A stretch of DNA of 21,091 bases from IMG/VR virus record IMGVR_UViG_3300036853_000119, positions 1 through 21,091 of that record, one strand, 5' to 3'. The notes beneath the pieces are model-generated. The model did not search any database. It worked only from the letters and a program-made list of their open reading frames with translations, and was not told the DNA's origin. The stretch comes from a virus. A program made the translations under genes and the position numbers. Shown one piece after another: positions 673 through 5,839 of this stretch (position 1 is its first letter; every line of letters starts with the position of its first letter).

Positions 673-2298
673 TCATGACGCCACCTCCCAGGGCCACTGT
701 GCCCGCTGTCCGGCCTCCACCAACGGAATCATGGCGAAGGTCCGATCGGTCAACCCACCCAGCTCATGTCGGGTGGACGATGTCTCCATCATGGCTGGGG
801 CGTACCCCAGCATGTTGAAGGCGTAGATGGGTACGTTGGCCGGGATCTGAGAACTGACGACATCTCGGCTGACCCAAACCGGCTGGGTGCCGAACGTCTG
901 ACCATCAGTCACGATGACTACCCGATCCTGGCCAGTCCACGTTGCCCGCAACGCTTCCGCTGTCCGGGTACCGTGGCCAACCTCGCCGACCCGGGCAACG
1001 AATCGCTCCGTCTCCCGGAGTACCCCGGCACCCTTACGTACCGGGTGCGGGAACACGCCATCGGCGTAGCCGTACAGGTTCACGTTCTCCCCCTTGGCGG
1101 CCAGGGCCACCCCGAACAGGGCGCCGGCCATCATGGGCGTGATCTTCGACTTCCTGCTCAGGCCCATGCTGGACATTGAGGACGAGGTGTCCACCAGGAC
1201 CAGCGTCGAGCCCGGCAGGGCCGGGATGTTGGCCGTGGCGTACTGCATAGCCGTCTCCAGTGGCTGCGCCCAGGCGGCGTTGGTCGCCTCCAGGTACGCC
1301 GACAGGAACCGGTATGGCAGCTGCCGGGAGTTGTGCACAGCGGTCTGCTGAGACAGGGTAAGGGCCACTTCCCGGACCATCTCGTCCGAGATACCGGCCT
1401 CCTGGAAGTTGCGCAGGTTCCGCAACAGAGCCATGTACCCCATGTTCGGGATGATGGCCTCCCAGGCAGCCTTATCCATGGGACCAGAGGAAGACAGTGC
1501 CTCCCACGTTATTCCAGCCTCGGCCAAAGCCTCACCGACGTTGAAGGAGGCAAAGATGGACTTGCGGCTTTCTGGACCTTGGAGATCCCTAAGCATCGCG
1601 TTCCGGTACCGGAGCATTGTCAGTTCTGCCGGGACCTCGGTGGGGCGGTGCCGACTGTCCAAGATGTACTTGAACAGTGCGCCCTGTTCCTGGCGCCATT
1701 CGCCGACTCGAGGGTGCGTCAACTCGATCACGTCGGCCATCCGTACCGAGCTTCGGTCCGAATCCCACTTGATGAAGTTGCGCTCCGTGTACAGCCGCTT
1801 GGCCACATCAGCAACACCACGACGGATAGGGCCAGGGATCTTGCGGCCGTACGTCTGGAGGTAGTAGCTCAGGGCCTCTGCCGGCTCGTCGGCACGGAGC
1901 AGAGTCGCACCGATAATCCGGCGGGCCGGGCCCATCTGCTCGCCCGGCTGGTCACGACGTGATAGCGCACGCGCCGCCTCAACAGCACCAACGACAGCTG
2001 CTGTGCGAATGTTGGCGTCTCGCCGCAACCAGGGCAGAAACTGACCCAGCCACTGCGGGTCCTCGGCGGCAACACGATGGACCAGCTCGATGAATCGCTG
2101 GTTTCGGTCGCCGGCCTTCTCATAGAACGTGTCCTCCCCGTAGAAGTTCGTCACTGCCAATAGAAACAAGTCTGACTTGGCATCACGAGACCAGGCCGCT
2201 GCGCCCTCAAACGTCTTCGTGTCCTGCCTAGTCGTCGTCACCGGGGACAGTGCTGACGGCTTCGCCGTCTTCGCCCCCTTCGTGTTCAATCGTGCCAT
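673..2298 (-). CDS. Ro60/TROVE-domain RNA-binding protein (Rsr-like)
   Basis: A 541-aa protein, close to the usual Ro60 length of about 540. Ro60 family proteins are ring-shaped HEAT-repeat proteins that bind Y RNAs on the outer surface and misfolded or 3'-single-stranded RNAs through the central hole. The N-terminal two thirds (about 20-345) form the TROVE region. The C-terminal third is a von Willebrand A-like domain with an intact MIDAS: DTSSS at 370-374, the Thr of GHGTRT near 444, and the Asp of VTDGQ near 465. The start is the ATG with AAGGAGAAGG just upstream (2299-2312); it overlaps the upstream LAGLIDADG gene by 71 bases, so the two are probably coupled. A longer in-frame ATG at 2397 has no comparable ribosome site. 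Three Y RNA-like units lie upstream on the same strand. In bacteria Ro60 orthologues act with Y RNAs and nucleases in RNA turnover; a phage role is unknown. Confidence 0.95.
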   Translation of the reverse strand: MARLNTKGAKTAKPSALSPVTTTRQDTKTFEGAAAWSRDAKSDLFLLAVTNFYGEDTFYEKAGDRNQRFIELVHRVAAEDPQWLGQFLPWLRRDANIRTAAVVGAVEAARALSRRDQPGEQMGPARRIIGATLLRADEPAEALSYYLQTYGRKIPGPIRRGVADVAKRLYTERNFIKWDSDRSSVRMADVIELTHPRVGEWRQEQGALFKYILDSRHRPTEVPAELTMLRYRNAMLRDLQGPESRKSIFASFNVGEALAEAGITWEALSSSGPMDKAAWEAIIPNMGYMALLRNLRNFQEAGISDEMVREVALTLSQQTAVHNSRQLPYRFLSAYLEATNAAWAQPLETAMQYATANIPALPGSTLVLVDTSSSMSSMGLSRKSKITPMMAGALFGVALAAKGENVNLYGYADGVFPHPVRKGAGVLRETERFVARVGEVGHGTRTAEALRATWTGQDRVVIVTDGQTFGTQPVWVSRDVVSSQIPANVPIYAFNMLGYAPAMMETSSTRHELGGLTDRTFAMIPLVEAGQRAQWPWEVAS

Positions 2299-2812
2299 TT
2301 GCCTTCTCCTTTTCATGGAACTGGAGTGCGAGTTCATACACCGGTGGCAGATCCCAGCCAAGGCCCCTGAGTCGGGCCAGGGTGGCGTAGACGGCACCGC
2401 TGCCTCGCCCCGAATAGGCCGTCACCTTCTGGATCTGGTCGATCGCTTCCCGGTAACCTTTATCGATCACCAGGAACGGCAACAGGTTGTCCAGTACTAC
2501 GACCAGGCCGGCGCCCGTGATGGTCCACCGGGAGATCTCCGCTACCCATTCTCTGTCAGCGACATGAACATGAGCCTCGGGACAGTGCTCGCTACAGCCT
2601 CGACGGATGAAATTCGACAGGGTCTTGGCGTTCTTCCACTCCGGCTTTGTTCCGGTAAGCAGACCAAGCTGCCGCACGATCGCAGCATCCTTGCTGTCAA
2701 CGGTGAGGACGGCCTGAATGGTGTTCCGTTGCTGGTTTGTCTTGTAATGGATCCTTCCCTTGAGGTCGATGATCCCGGCCATCCAGCCGAGGCTGGTCAT
2801 TGATATGGTCAT
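2228..2812 (-). CDS. Single-motif LAGLIDADG-fold protein, probably catalytically inactive
   Basis: A 194-aa protein. Residues 10-21 read WMAGIIDLKGRI, matching the LAGLIDADG helix of homing endonucleases. The later GCSEHCPEAHVHV and RWTITG...NLLPFLVIDKG segments fit the beta-sheet and closing helices of a single-motif domain. The acidic residue before the last Gly, which binds the catalytic metal in enzymes such as I-CreI, is Lys (K18), so DNA cleavage is doubtful. The protein ends in an acidic tail (HEGGEDGEAVSTVPGDDD). AAGGAG lies 5 bases before this ATG; another ATG 3 bases upstream (2815) would be only 2 bases from it. It is the first protein gene after the Y RNA array and hairpin terminator, and overlaps the TROVE gene by 71 bases. 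Context suggests a partner or regulator of the TROVE system; that is inference. No intron or intein is seen around it. Confidence 0.75.
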   Translation of the reverse strand: MTISMTSLGWMAGIIDLKGRIHYKTNQQRNTIQAVLTVDSKDAAIVRQLGLLTGTKPEWKNAKTLSNFIRRGCSEHCPEAHVHVADREWVAEISRWTITGAGLVVVLDNLLPFLVIDKGYREAIDQIQKVTAYSGRGSGAVYATLARLRGLGWDLPPVYELALQFHEKEKANGTIEHEGGEDGEAVSTVPGDDD

Positions 2813-2832
2813 CATTTCTCCTTGGATATAGA

Positions 2833-2954: not shown

Positions 2955-3097
2955 GGTACCAGGCAACAAAGTCGACGCAGGTGACATGAGTGGCGTGCTG
3001 CTTACACAACCCCCCTATGAGCTTGGTAGCAGGGGGCGGAGGATTTGATACCTCCACTTCCACCTTGGAAGTAACCCGTGTCTTCGGATCTGGTACC
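2955..3097 (-). ncRNA. Y RNA-like Ro60-binding RNA, unit 1 (143 nt)
   Basis: The ends pair perfectly over 8 bp (2955-2962 with 3090-3097). Next inward is the conserved internal loop: UCCGA on the 5' strand (3084-3088, minus strand) opposite CUUUGUUGC (2963-2971). Then comes a second helix, 3074-3082 with 2974-2982, 8 of 9 paired when read as minus-strand RNA. The head carries a 6-bp hairpin (3056-3072), a tRNA T-arm-like hairpin with 5-bp stem and loop UAUCAAAU (3038-3055) and a 6-bp hairpin (3011-3036). UCCGA opposite CUUG in a bulged terminal stem is the known Ro60-binding arrangement of vertebrate Y RNAs, and a TROVE gene lies downstream. Y RNA identity is inferred from structure and context. 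Confidence 0.68.
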
Positions 3098-3107
3098 CAA
3101 GTTGGGT

Positions 3108-3178
3108 GGCCCCCGGCTGGAGTTTAACCAGCGTCTCTCGGCTTTAGGCGGAGTGTCTTCACGTTGGACGACAGGGAC
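3108..3178 (-). ncRNA. tRNA-like cloverleaf between units 1 and 2 (degenerate or fortuitous)
   Basis: Read on the minus strand, 71 bases can form a cloverleaf with tRNA spacing: a 7-bp acceptor (3172-3178 with 3109-3115, two G-U pairs), a 3-bp D-like stem, an anticodon-like stem with one C-C mismatch and 7-base loop CCUAAAG, and a perfect 5-bp T-stem with 7-base loop UUAAACU (3116-3132). Against a working tRNA: no GG in the D loop, no U33, no C56 in the T loop. It may be a decayed tRNA, a tRNA mimic in the Y RNA transcript, or chance. Confidence 0.28.
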
Positions 3179-3187
3179 CACGTTAAA

Positions 3188-3304
3188 AGTTGCCAGGCAA
3201 CAAGGTGTCTCAGGTATGCCCGCACGCCATGCGGGCCCGGCCAAGAGCGGCCGGGGGTGGAATCGAACCATCGAAGTAACCCGAAACGATCGGATCTGGC
3301 AACT
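3188..3304 (-). ncRNA. Y RNA-like Ro60-binding RNA, unit 2 (117 nt)
   Basis: The terminal stem is 9 bp (3188-3196 with 3296-3304) and differs in sequence from units 1 and 3 while staying fully paired. The internal loop has UCCGA (3290-3294, minus strand) opposite CCUUGUUGC (3197-3205). The second helix (3279-3287 with 3207-3215) is a full 9 bp as minus-strand RNA, two of them G-U. The head has a T-arm-like hairpin with loop UUCGAUU (3256-3272, one A-C mismatch in the stem) and two GC-rich 7-bp hairpins (3236-3255 and 3218-3236). The 3' end runs into UUUU, as in the U-tailed ends of vertebrate Y RNAs. Confidence 0.68.
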
Positions 3305-3327
3305 ACGTATTCACTTATCAAGGTAAA

Positions 3328-3407
3328 GCAGCCAGGCAACAAGGCGACTCAGGTTTCTATGTTCTCTTGAAATGAGGGAAGTAACCCGGATCTTCGGATC
3401 TGGCTGC
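3328..3407 (-). ncRNA. Y RNA-like Ro60-binding RNA, unit 3 (80 nt, minimal form)
   Basis: An 8-bp terminal stem (3328-3335 with 3400-3407), UCCGA (3394-3398, minus strand) opposite CCUUGUUGC (3336-3344), and a second helix (3384-3392 with 3346-3354) with 8 of 9 paired as minus-strand RNA. The head is only about 30 bases and has no clear T-arm, so this unit is essentially the predicted Ro60-binding stem alone. It is promoter-proximal and its 3' end is followed by UUU. A 7-bp hairpin (3408-3435) lies between it and the promoter. Confidence 0.65.
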
Positions 3408-3510: not shown

Positions 3511-4941
3511 ATGGGCAAGTCCCTCAAAGAGCGCGTAGCCGCCTTACCGGCACAAGACCGGGACGAGTGGATTGCCAACCTGCCCGAAGAACTGCTCCCC
3601 GAGATCCTGCGCAACGAGTGGTGGTGGACCGCTCGCCCGGAGCAGGTCCCACCCGATGGTGACTGGCTCGTCTGCCTGGCTCTAGCTGGTCGTGGCTTCG
3701 GCAAGTCCCGAGCTTCCTCCGAATGGATCACCGAGCGGGTACTCCAGCACCCGTTCGACCGGCACGGCGTACCCACCGAATGGCTGGTGGTGGCGGACAC
3801 CTTGGCCGATGCCCGGACGATCAACGCCGAAGGTCCTAGCGGCATCCTCAACGTGCTGACCCGGCGCAAGATCGACCACCGGTACAAGCAGAGCCCCCGG
3901 CCCATGGTCCTGTTCCCGGACGGGGCAAAGATCTACCTGGAGGGGGCCGACGACCCCGACACGGGGCGTGGATACAACGCAGCCGGCGTCGTCTGTGACG
4001 AGATGGCCAAGTGGGTCAAACCCTACGAAACGTGGTACGAGGGTCTCCTGCCATCCCTGCGGGCTGACCTAGTAGACGATCATCCCCGGGCCTTCGTTAC
4101 CACCACCCCGAAGCCGATCAAGTTACTGGCCGAGTGGCTGTCCCGCAGCGACGAGACGATCCATGTCATTACCGGGTCCACCTTTGACAACGCCTCCAAC
4201 CTGTCCTCGCACGCCCTGCGAGAGCTGAAGCTGCGTTACGCCGGTACTGCCCTCGGTGAACAGGAGCTGTACGGCCGGCTCCTGGAGCTGACTAGCGGCG
4301 GCCTATTCAAGCGCCTGGACATTGCCAACAACCGGGTGACGGTACCCCCTGACGATCTGGTGTCGATTGTGGTGGGGGCCGACCCGAACCTCACCGGTGA
4401 GGATGCCATGTTCGGCATCGTGGTCGTGGGTCGGGACGTGAAGAATGAGTTGTTCGTCCTGGCCGATTGCTCAGTGGAATACTCGGGGCGCCAGGCTGTC
4501 CTTGCCGCCTGGCGTGCGGTGTCTTTATACGCTGCCGATGTCCTCGTGTATGAGGAAAACCTGGGTAAGCGGTACCTGGAGGAGGTCCTTCGGGATGCTT
4601 ACCAGGAATCCATTGAACTTGGCCTGTTCCCGAAACACACCTCGCCACCCATGCAACGAGTACACGCCAAGCATGGAAAGAAGACCAGAGCTGAACCGGT
4701 AGCCATGCGTAACGAACAGGGCAAGCTGCACATGGTGGGGACCTGGCCACAGCTCGAAGACGAAATGGTCCTCTTCGATCCTGAGTCCACCCGGGAGTCC
4801 CCCGACCGCATGGATGCCATGGTCCATGCGTCCATCAAGCTCATGAGTGGGGAACGTCGACGTTTGGGTGCCGCCGACCTGAGCAAGTACGACGGTTTTA
4901 GGATCGATCAGTCTATGTACGACTTGGGTCGACTATTGTAA
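3511..4941 (+). CDS. terL: Terminase large subunit (DNA-packaging ATPase/nuclease)
   Basis: A 476-aa protein of normal TerL length that packages phage DNA into the prohead and cuts the concatemer. The ATPase half has Walker A AGRGFGKS (59-66), Walker B VVCDE (160-164) and the coupling motif FVTTTPKP (195-202). The RNase H-like nuclease half has the expected acidic residues: D291 in VVGADPN, E348/E349 in VYEEN, and D432/D435 in SPDRMDAMVHA. ARPEQVPPDGDW just before Walker A is typical of actinophage terminases. The ATG at 3511 lacks a ribosome site, and TACTAT sits 7 bases upstream, so the message is probably leaderless. No small terminase gene is visible beside it. It opens the rightward virion module and is divergent from the Y RNA array. 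Confidence 0.95.
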   Translation: MGKSLKERVAALPAQDRDEWIANLPEELLPEILRNEWWWTARPEQVPPDGDWLVCLALAGRGFGKSRASSEWITERVLQHPFDRHGVPTEWLVVADTLADARTINAEGPSGILNVLTRRKIDHRYKQSPRPMVLFPDGAKIYLEGADDPDTGRGYNAAGVVCDEMAKWVKPYETWYEGLLPSLRADLVDDHPRAFVTTTPKPIKLLAEWLSRSDETIHVITGSTFDNASNLSSHALRELKLRYAGTALGEQELYGRLLELTSGGLFKRLDIANNRVTVPPDDLVSIVVGADPNLTGEDAMFGIVVVGRDVKNELFVLADCSVEYSGRQAVLAAWRAVSLYAADVLVYEENLGKRYLEEVLRDAYQESIELGLFPKHTSPPMQRVHAKHGKKTRAEPVAMRNEQGKLHMVGTWPQLEDEMVLFDPESTRESPDRMDAMVHASIKLMSGERRRLGAADLSKYDGFRIDQSMYDLGRLL

Positions 4942-4971
4942 GGAAGTCGACTGGAAGGAGGCGTACCCCAA

Positions 4972-5463
4972 TTGGCCAGTATCGACCTTGGGGACCTCGT
5001 CCTTGACTTTGGTTTCCGGGTCAAGTGTTGCCAACGCTTAAAGATCGTGTGGCATCTGGGTTCTGTTACCGACACAGACCCGTCTGACCGTGTCATCAAA
5101 CCCCCTCCCTATACCCCCTGGACTGGAAGGATTGATCTCGTCATGGATCTTGCAGCCGACATGAAGGTTGCGCTTCTCGCGCCCACCTTCACTGATGAGG
5201 TTGGCAACCCTGTTTCAACCCCGGCCGGTGCCACCTTTACTTACACGGTGGACGACCCGACCATCATCTCCCTCACGGACAATGGCGATGGCACCGGTGA
5301 AGCTGCCGCCATGGGTACGCTGGGTACAGCTAACCTTCACCTTGATGCCGCATTCAATGGCTCTACCGCAACCGGCGACCTTCAGATCGTGGTTGTGGCC
5401 GGTCTCGCTGAGCGGGTGGCCATCAATGTTGGTCCTCCGGAGGAAGTCACCCCGGACGTCTAG
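4972..5463 (+). CDS. Bacterial Ig-like (Big_2-type) domain protein, possible virion decoration
   Basis: A 163-aa protein if started at the TTG at 4972, which has a strong AAGGAGG about 10 bases upstream. An in-frame ATG at 5143, with GGAAGGA upstream, would give a 106-aa protein holding just the recognisable domain. That domain (residue 58 onward) has the Ig-like beta pattern: TFTDEVGNPV, FTYTVDDPTIISL, DGTGEAAAMGTLGTANL and LQIVVVAGLAERVAINV. Such domains occur on phage capsids and tails as surface decoration. The upstream 57 residues have coding-like codon use but no recognised domain. It lies 30 bases after the terminase stop and directly before a strong terminator, so terL and this gene form one unit. 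Confidence 0.75.
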   Translation: MASIDLGDLVLDFGFRVKCCQRLKIVWHLGSVTDTDPSDRVIKPPPYTPWTGRIDLVMDLAADMKVALLAPTFTDEVGNPVSTPAGATFTYTVDDPTIISLTDNGDGTGEAAAMGTLGTANLHLDAAFNGSTATGDLQIVVVAGLAERVAINVGPPEEVTPDV

Positions 5464-5472
5464 CCAATGACG

Positions 5473-5512
5473 AAAACGGAGCCTTGGGTTATCGACCCAG
5501 GGCTCTGTTTTT
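5473..5512 (+). terminator. Intrinsic terminator after the Ig-like gene
   Basis: An 11-bp stem (5479-5489 with 5495-5505, one G-U) has a 5-base loop and is followed by TGTTTTT. The A-rich 5' side (5473-5476) can pair with the T-run, so the stem may also act from the other strand. Confidence 0.88.
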
Positions 5513-5557
5513 GCTTGTATCTACCCCTTGTGTTCTGGACACCCGTACAGTATGTAC

Positions 5558-5839
5558 ATGCTGGTCATTTCGCTGATCGTGGCAGCGTTAGCTGTTGCCA
5601 GGGTGACGCGATTTCTCATCGAGGACCGGCTGTCGGTGAAGTGGCGGCAATGGGTCGTCAAACGATGGGGAGCCGATTCCCTCCCCTCCTACTTTGTTCA
5701 CTGTCCCTGGTGTATGGGGATGTGGATGTCCCTGCTTGCTGTGCCCGCCGTTCTGTACCCCTACCAATGGGTCGTGGCCATCTACGCCGTGCCCGCCATC
5801 TCGATGGTTACTGGTCTCTTGCTGGACCGGAAGGAGTAG
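5558..5839 (+). CDS. Small membrane protein, DUF1360-like
   Basis: A 93-aa protein. The N-terminal segment (1-17, LVISLIVAALAVARVTR) is hydrophobic, and a second hydrophobic stretch (about 55-86) contains the CPWCMGMWMS motif. A CPxCxGxW motif next to membrane segments is characteristic of DUF1360-type proteins found in phages and Bacillus; the role is unknown. No ribosome site precedes any start. TACAGT (5546-5551) lies 6 bases before this ATG and could be a -10 for a leaderless message; an ATG at 5552 and a TTG at 5528 are alternatives. The gene comes right after a terminator, so it needs its own promoter or read-through. Its stop is 3 bases before the portal start, and the portal ribosome site lies inside its last codons. 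Confidence 0.75.
   Translation: MLVISLIVAALAVARVTRFLIEDRLSVKWRQWVVKRWGADSLPSYFVHCPWCMGMWMSLLAVPAVLYPYQWVVAIYAVPAISMVTGLLLDRKE

What the first reader, a model, noticed from the sequence alone, without database searches (positions are those of the whole stretch)
2955..3407. Phage-borne array of three Y RNA-like RNAs next to a Ro60/TROVE gene
Three units (143, 117, 80 nt) share CCAGAUCCGA and (C/U)UUGUUGCCUGG strands. Their terminal stems differ in sequence (GGTACCAG, AGTTGCCAG, GCAGCCAG) yet each pairs perfectly with its own partner, which is direct covariation. A second helix also covaries (for example A-U, U-A, A-U at its second pair). UCCGA opposite CUUG is the Ro60-binding signature of vertebrate Y RNAs, and a full-length TROVE gene lies downstream on the same strand. 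Single Y RNAs beside bacterial Ro60 genes are known; I do not recall a described three-unit array in a phage.
Basis: partly seen in the sequence, partly recalled or inferred. Interest (0 to 1): 0.92.

Follow-up and report, generated by a model that had tools for sequence, protein, structure and literature searches.

The report
Phage Ro60 gene with three Y RNAs
A virus of (probably) soil actinobacteria carries a gene for the RNA-binding protein Ro60 and, just upstream, three small noncoding Y RNAs, at least one and probably two of which imitate parts of a tRNA; the structure is real and strongly conserved, but such RNA arrays turn out to be the rule beside Ro60 genes of related phages and bacteria, so this is a solid new example of a known RNA family rather than a new kind of thing.

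Summary
On the minus strand, three units (A 3328-3407, B 3189-3303, C 2955-3097) share a Ro60-binding-type handle and lie upstream of a TROVE/Ro60 gene (673-2298) in a tailed-phage contig. Thirty-two units from nine contigs give a 16-pair consensus with 12 compensated pairs (covariation score 0.559 against 0.189 shuffled). A model built from them finds units only on the Ro60 strand.

B has a perfect T-loop, a 7-bp acceptor stem and a D-like hairpin in circularly permuted order, as in published YrlA RNAs. It also overstated the rarity: with a broader model all 70 actinobacterial Ro60 loci (1-5 units) and all 77 viral loci (2-8 units) carry such units. Three is ordinary. The RNAs are unannotated in GenBank phages, or miscalled as tRNAs by ARAGORN.

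Best explanation: a phage Ro60 RNP in which each Y RNA clamps Ro60 with a constant handle and presents a different, exchangeable module to an effector. Window B and its closest relative share identical handles (58/58 nt) but unrelated modules. Identity is near certain; the tethering function is inferred from Deinococcus. New member of a known kind.

The parts
3328..3407 (-). Y RNA unit A (80 nt): Ro60-type handle with a short body and no tRNA-like module
   Evidence: Direct reading; terminal stem 8/8 pairs; z -2.64; covariation
3189..3303 (-). Y RNA unit B (115 nt; stem extends 1 bp further on each side): handle plus permuted tRNA-mimic module
   Evidence: fold z -4.16
3256..3272 (-). T-arm mimic of unit B: GAUGG-UUCGAUU-CCACC, canonical T-loop
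   Evidence: 6 of 6 T-loop positions, 4 of 5 stem pairs
3236..3255 (-). Acceptor-stem mimic of unit B: CCCGGCC-GCUCUU-GGCCGGG, 7 of 7 pairs directly after the T-arm, closed by a loop
3219..3235 (-). D-arm-like hairpin of unit B: CCCGCA-UGGCG-UGCGGG, loop with GG
   Evidence: Sequence reading; same short D-like hairpin in L004, L005 and L032 last units
2955..3097 (-). Y RNA unit C (143 nt): handle plus a degenerate tRNA-mimic module
   Evidence: fold z -3.02, but the minimum-energy fold disrupts part of the handle
2992..3055 (-). Module of unit C: T-arm-like GGAGG-UAUCAAAU-CCUCC (3038-3055), acceptor-like CCCCCU/AGGGGG (3010-3037), D-arm-like UUGUGUAAGCAGCACGCC (2992-3009)
   Evidence: Sequence reading; the module is conserved at 85/86 aligned positions in L001; fails the strict T-loop test
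3108..3178 (-). Canonical-order tRNA-like gene between units B and C, degenerate (loop CCUAAAG lacks U33; no GG in D-loop)
   Evidence: Rfam tRNA 32.1 bits; ARAGORN none; counterpart in L001 33.9 bits
2835..2873 (-). Terminator-type hairpin (14 bp, then UUUUCUAU) separating the array from the protein genes
   Evidence: -29.4 kcal/mol, z -5.17; hairpin and T-run at the same place in L001-L006, L027 and L032
2228..2815 (-). ORF of 195 aa between array and ro60, weak HNH-endonuclease PHROG match; not part of the conserved array
   Evidence: PHROG 5046 E 3.2e-7; also in L001, absent in L002 and L003
673..2298 (-). ro60 (TROVE plus vWA) gene, 541 aa
   Evidence: PF05731 E 1.8e-17; PHROG 850; profile matches solved Ro60/Rsr structures 1yvp, 2nvo and TROVE protein 9kop

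Best explanation
The region is a phage Ro60 ribonucleoprotein locus. A separately terminated transcript from the minus strand yields three Y RNAs (and a tRNA-like RNA). Each Y RNA has a constant handle (terminal stem, asymmetric UCCGA/CUUGUU internal loop, second helix, GGGUUACUUC) that binds the outer surface of the phage's own Ro60, and a variable distal module. The module of B, and in degenerate form that of C, is a YrlA-type tRNA mimic in circularly permuted order (T-arm, acceptor stem closed by a loop, D-arm), in which the second helix takes the place of the anticodon stem; A is a short Y RNA without the mimic. By analogy with the Deinococcus Rsr-Y RNA-PNPase complex, the modules most likely recruit an RNA-processing effector such as PNPase, or gate access to Ro60, so that one Ro60 protein can be loaded with alternative partners during infection. 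Shown here: structure, covariation, handle conservation, module mimicry, linkage to Ro60. Inferred: transcription and processing, Ro60 binding, the effector and the benefit to the phage. (Identity as Ro60-associated Y RNAs: about 0.95; the tether mechanism: about 0.5.)
For: Compensatory pairing across 32 and 124 units. All 99 hits of model R1 at E<=1 lie on the Ro60 strand. In four whole actinobacterial genomes (about 38 Mb) every strong hit of model R2 lies at a Ro60 gene, including one beside a second Ro60 paralogue. Fifteen of the 39 units listed have a canonical T-arm followed by a 6-7 bp acceptor stem, many then UAGCUCA..GG..GAGC. Rfam YrlA (RF02553) matches relatives at the same positions: Xanthomonas phage 55.9 and 46.7 bits, E 6.8e-12 and 3.2e-9; L032 26 bits, E 0.003. 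The Ro60 family carries an invariant DxSxS motif and matches solved Rsr/Ro60. Rsr binds the Y RNA lower stem, and Y RNA tethers Rsr to PNPase, in D. radiodurans (PMC4726728, PMC8394870).
Against: No Rfam YrlA match in the window itself at E<=5; relatives match below the gathering score of 69 bits. The mimic in C is degenerate and its predicted fold competes with the handle. No expression, binding or effector data exist for this contig. The loci were chosen because they hold Ro60, so adjacency is independent only in the whole-genome test, where the first-look filter scored just 150 candidates per genome.
Confidence: 0.75

Rival explanations
1. The modules are decoys: tRNA-like surfaces held on Ro60 that occupy host anticodon nucleases or other tRNA-targeting defences, with the phage tRNA cluster replacing cleaved tRNAs.
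For: Phage Ro60 genes often lie inside large tRNA clusters. Viral arrays are longer than bacterial ones (mean 3.8 against 2.5 units). Competitive inhibition of an anticodon nuclease by YrlA has been suggested in Salmonella (PMC7790460).
Against: The mimics replace the anticodon arm with the handle, so an anticodon nuclease would see no anticodon; bacteria carry the same RNAs; the viral-bacterial difference is not corrected for ancestry.
Confidence: 0.2
2. The array is a cis-acting leader: Ro60 binds the handles in the ro60 5' region and regulates its own expression through the terminator.
For: The array is usually immediately upstream of ro60, with a terminator hairpin between in the close relatives.
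Against: In Arthrobacter phage Atuin three strong units lie downstream of ro60 (L037 5899-6331, ro60 4001-5644). In the window a 195-aa ORF separates array and ro60. A leader would not need compensated stems in 2-8 separate units.
Confidence: 0.08
3. The units are decayed tRNA genes or chance hairpins of a phage tRNA cluster.
For: T-loops and acceptor stems; ARAGORN calls some Y units in cultured phages tRNAs.
Against: ARAGORN finds none in the window; unit A has no tRNA part; the arms are in permuted order; terminal stem and second helix covary; canonical tRNAs match the Y model only weakly and partially.
Confidence: 0.02
4. The Y RNAs act only as gates that block the Ro60 ring and stabilise Ro60, and module sequence is neutral filler.
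For: Unit A and many other units lack any tRNA-like module; modules can turn over faster than handles.
Against: T-loop, 7-bp acceptor and D-arm identity nucleotides are maintained in many unrelated modules; C's module is conserved at 85/86 aligned positions with L001.
Confidence: 0.2

Closest known systems
YrlA-type bacterial Y RNAs (Rfam RF02553; Chen et al. 2014 and Wang et al. 2018, known here through PMC8394870, PMC7790460 and PMC4726728)
   Same: Encoded beside a Ro60 orthologue; basal stem joining the 5' and 3' ends; tRNA-like domain of D, T and acceptor arms; RF02553 matches related units at the same positions
   Different: The window units are below detection by RF02553; handle sequence differs; three units in one array with different modules plus a tRNA-like gene between
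Deinococcus radiodurans Rsr-Y RNA-PNPase complex (RYPER)
   Same: Ro60 protein plus Y RNA with a basal stem for Rsr and a distal module
   Different: No evidence yet that the phage RNAs bind PNPase; here several different RNAs serve one Ro60
Vertebrate Y RNAs (RF00019)
   Same: Analogous asymmetric internal loop in the lower stem (UCCGA opposite CUUG)
   Different: No match to the family; tRNA mimic in place of the vertebrate upper stem and loop; literature treats bacterial and vertebrate Y RNAs as not homologous (PMC4726728)
Y RNAs beside Ro60 in other phages (mycobacteriophages, Chen et al. 2014 as cited in PMC12282133)
   Same: Phage-borne Ro60 with adjacent Y RNAs
   Different: This contig's lineage and its three-unit set are new; multi-unit arrays are quantified here

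Membership tests
Bacterial Y RNA / YrlA (RF02553) | Encoded next to a Ro60 (Rsr) orthologue | tested here: met
   PF05731 gene 673-2298, same strand
Bacterial Y RNA / YrlA (RF02553) | Basal stem pairing 5' and 3' ends with a conserved Ro60-site-like internal loop | tested here: met
   Stem 8/8 in A, B, C; covariation 0.559 against 0.189
Bacterial Y RNA / YrlA (RF02553) | tRNA-like domain with T, acceptor and D arms in at least one RNA of the locus | tested here: met
   Unit B: T-loop 6/6, acceptor 7/7, short D-like hairpin; unit C degenerate; A none
Bacterial Y RNA / YrlA (RF02553) | Score above the RF02553 gathering threshold | tested here: inconclusive
   Window: no match at E<=5. Relatives found by the same model: 55.9 bits (L204) and 26 bits (L032), below 69 but at the right place
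Bacterial Y RNA / YrlA (RF02553) | Binds Ro60; substrate of tRNA-modifying enzymes (DusA, TruB) | not testable with these tools
   Needs biochemistry
RYPER (Ro60-Y RNA-PNPase) | Y RNA tethers PNPase to Ro60 | not testable with these tools
   Needs pull-down or structure
Ro60/TROVE protein | TROVE domain and vWA MIDAS motif DxSxS | tested here: met
   PF05731 above cut-off; D370, S372, S374 invariant in 11 relatives
Vertebrate Y RNA (RF00019) | Match to the Rfam model | tested here: not met
   No match at E<=5
tRNA | Canonical-order cloverleaf called by ARAGORN or the Rfam tRNA model | tested here: not met
   None on units A, B, C; only 3108-3178 matches Rfam tRNA

The most novel reading that the evidence does not exclude
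Phage Y RNA arrays are modular cassette arrays: a constant Ro60-binding handle carries interchangeable tRNA-mimic modules that recombine at the handle-module boundary, so that one phage Ro60 is loaded with up to eight different effector or decoy surfaces, and phages have expanded this repertoire beyond their hosts' 1-5.
Probability: 0.3. Interest if true: 0.72.

Novelty: new member of a known kind. Interest (0 to 1): 0.45.

Why it matters
It gives a strongly supported phage Ro60-Y RNA locus and a covariance model that finds this family across phages and actinobacteria, where YrlA in Rfam largely misses it and GenBank and ARAGORN leave it unannotated or call it tRNA. It makes the question of what the tRNA-mimic domain is for testable in cultured phages, where arrays of several different mimics on one handle allow side-by-side comparison. 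If modules prove to recruit different partners, it would be a natural example of swappable RNA adaptors on one protein ring.

Tried and rejected
Direct DNA similarity search of the array in phage records: no match; the family is only visible by covariance model. Rfam at gathering level: no Y RNA family in the window or in ten relatives. A sigma-70 promoter scan around the array found nothing; TTGACA-like words lie 18-26 nt upstream of several units, but the spacing does not fit a promoter of those units. I tested the suggestion in PMC12282133 that three highly transcribed regions upstream of an Rsr-like gene of the Listeria phage CKA15 are Y RNAs, using its relative P100: the model finds no unit in 131 kb. 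The P100 protein of matching size and position (gp165; the equivalence is my inference) is DUF7788/DUF2828 rather than TROVE, and one unannotated region upstream matches ROOL RNA (RF03087, 86 bits, just under the cut-off). Considered and rejected: decayed tRNA cluster, cis-leader only, vertebrate Y RNA homology. Structure prediction of the Ro60 protein was not run because sequence profiles already match solved Ro60 and Rsr. The primary YrlA papers (Chen 2014, Wang 2018) were not held, so claims about them rest on reviews and, where marked, on memory.

Full report
1. What is there. The window is a 21,091-base virus record with terminase, portal, major head and tail genes on the plus strand. On the minus strand, reading away from the terminase, come unit A (3407-3328), unit B (3303-3189), a tRNA-like gene (3178-3108), unit C (3097-2955), a 14-bp hairpin followed by UUUU (2873-2835), a 195-aa ORF (2815-2228) and a 541-aa TROVE/Ro60 gene (2298-673). 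The host is not known; actinobacteria are inferred from the nearest Ro60 relatives among cultured phages (Streptomyces, Gordonia, Arthrobacter).

2. Is it more than chance? Searching IMG/VR with the Ro60 protein gave 32 loci. The closest contigs (including the window's nearest relative L001, Ro60 85% identical) hold 3-5 such units each, directly upstream of Ro60 on the same strand. An alignment of 32 units gives, by RNAalifold alone, an 8-bp terminal stem and an 8-pair second helix with 12 of 16 pairs compensated. The count test gives 95.5% paired against 77.1% shuffled, covariation 0.559 against 0.189 +/- 0.016, and at most 0.138 for slid partners. Unit finding for this alignment required at least 6 of 8 stem pairs, which favours the terminal stem, but not the second helix (92.6% paired) and not the pair-type diversity. 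In 124 units fitted to the model all 16 pairs show compensatory changes.

3. How widespread is it? A covariance model of the 32 units (R1) finds 99 matches at E<=1 in 38 Ro60 loci, all on the Ro60 strand, including cultured Streptomyces, Gordonia and Arthrobacter phages where the RNAs are not annotated as such. A second model (R2) finds units at all 70 actinobacterial chromosomal loci tested (1 unit at 9 loci, 2 at 28, 3 at 23, 4 at 8, 5 at 2; mean 2.5) and at all 77 viral loci (2-8 units, mean 3.8; 8 units in L134 and L161). These sets are not corrected for relatedness, some loci also served to train R2, and viral contigs may include prophages. In four whole genomes (about 38 Mb) strong matches lie only at Ro60 genes; the one apparent exception proved to be beside a second Ro60 paralogue. 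The family reaches Caulobacter phage CcrColossus (about 8 units) and Xanthomonas phage 10KY502B (about 4), but not the TROVE loci of Vibrio phage phiKT1024 or Myxococcus phage Mx1, and Thermus phage phiLo gives only one weak match. Listeria phage P100 served as a tRNA-rich negative control: no unit in 131 kb.

4. The modules. Fifteen of the 39 units from the close relatives listed carry a T-arm with canonical loop followed at once by a 6-7-bp stem closed by a short loop and, in many, UAGCUCA..GG..GAGC. This is a tRNA read in permuted order: T-arm, acceptor 3' strand, loop, acceptor 5' strand, positions 8-9, D-arm, with the second helix in place of the anticodon stem. Window unit B has T-loop UUCGAUU, a 7/7 acceptor (CCCGGCC/GGCCGGG) and a short D-like hairpin with GG in the loop; unit C has a degenerate version; unit A has none. 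Published YrlA has D, T and acceptor arms (PMC8394870). The Rfam YrlA model matches Xanthomonas-phage units over its full length at the R2 positions (55.9 bits, E 6.8e-12) and L032 weakly, which ties this family to YrlA, although the window itself is beyond that model's reach.

5. Modularity. Window unit B and L001 unit b have identical 5' arms (31/31) and 3' arms (27/27), yet their bodies are not recognisably related (34 of 54 aligned positions, z 1.9), whereas the flanking unit C body is 85/86 identical between the same contigs. B's body instead resembles the last, Ro60-proximal unit of L005 and L032 (z 7.5 and 6.6). This is what exchange of a module on a fixed handle would leave. One case is shown; generality is untested.

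6. Mechanism. Shown: conserved handle, tRNA-mimic modules, linkage to Ro60, and a terminator-type hairpin between the array and the protein genes in the close relatives. Inferred: the RNAs are made, processed and bound by the phage Ro60, and the modules recruit an effector as Y RNA recruits PNPase to Rsr in D. radiodurans (PMC8394870, PMC4726728). A decoy role against tRNA-targeting enzymes is possible (suggested for Salmonella YrlA in PMC7790460) but hard to square with the missing anticodon arm. A cis-leader role is unlikely because Arthrobacter phage Atuin carries three units downstream of Ro60.

7. Novelty. Y RNAs beside Ro60 in bacteria and phages, with tRNA-like domains, are published (Chen et al. 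2014; the statement 'at least one Y RNA in each species contains a tRNA-like domain' is from my memory of its abstract; the phage occurrence is confirmed through PMC12282133 and PMC7765460). A locus with more than one Y RNA is also known (yrlBA of Salmonella, PMC7790460). A three-unit array is ordinary in this family. What may be new, though I could not check it against the primary papers, is the scale (up to eight units), the larger viral arrays, the module exchange and the systematic misannotation. I therefore file it as a new member of a known kind with moderate interest.

Noticed in passing
L034 3769-3843, L036 3704-3775, L039 3774-3847, L202 2724-2814, L206 2131-2198: GenBank tRNA annotations (Arg-CCT in GiJojo, Arg-TCT in VanLee, Ser-GCT in Alone3, Pro-TGG in Frankenweenie, Gln in CcrColossus) overlap Y RNA units upstream of Ro60; Rfam's tRNA model does not accept them, ARAGORN calls the first four, so they look like false tRNA calls.
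   Followed up: partly
3108-3178 (-), with counterparts in L001 4791-4861, L002 and L007: A degenerate, Glu-like tRNA with loop CCUAAAG (no U33) is kept between Y RNA units in several related arrays; whether it is charged or has another role is unknown.
   Followed up: partly
2228-2815 (-): A 195-aa ORF with a weak HNH-endonuclease match (LAGLIDADG-like by eye) sits between array and ro60 in the window and L001 but not in L002 or L003, overlapping the ro60 start: possible homing-endonuclease insertion.
   Followed up: partly
L209 2051-3859 (-): Streptomyces stelliscabiei has a second Ro60 paralogue with a single short Y RNA directly upstream, about 7.4 Mb from the first locus.
   Followed up: partly
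L212 28073-28624 (-): Listeria phage P100 has a ROOL RNA match (86 bits, below the cut-off) upstream of a DUF7788/DUF2828 protein; in the related phage CKA15 highly transcribed unannotated regions near the tRNA genes were guessed to be Y RNAs (PMC12282133), so at least one may be ROOL instead.
   Followed up: partly
L012 5695-5835: A Y RNA unit whose body contains a tRNA in canonical, unpermuted order (Rfam tRNA 40.2 bits at 5740-5805).
   Followed up: no
window 3098-3103 and spacers before units in L004-L006, L027 and L032: Short spacers before many units carry ACUUC or ACUUG just upstream of the stem; possibly a processing signal.
   Followed up: no
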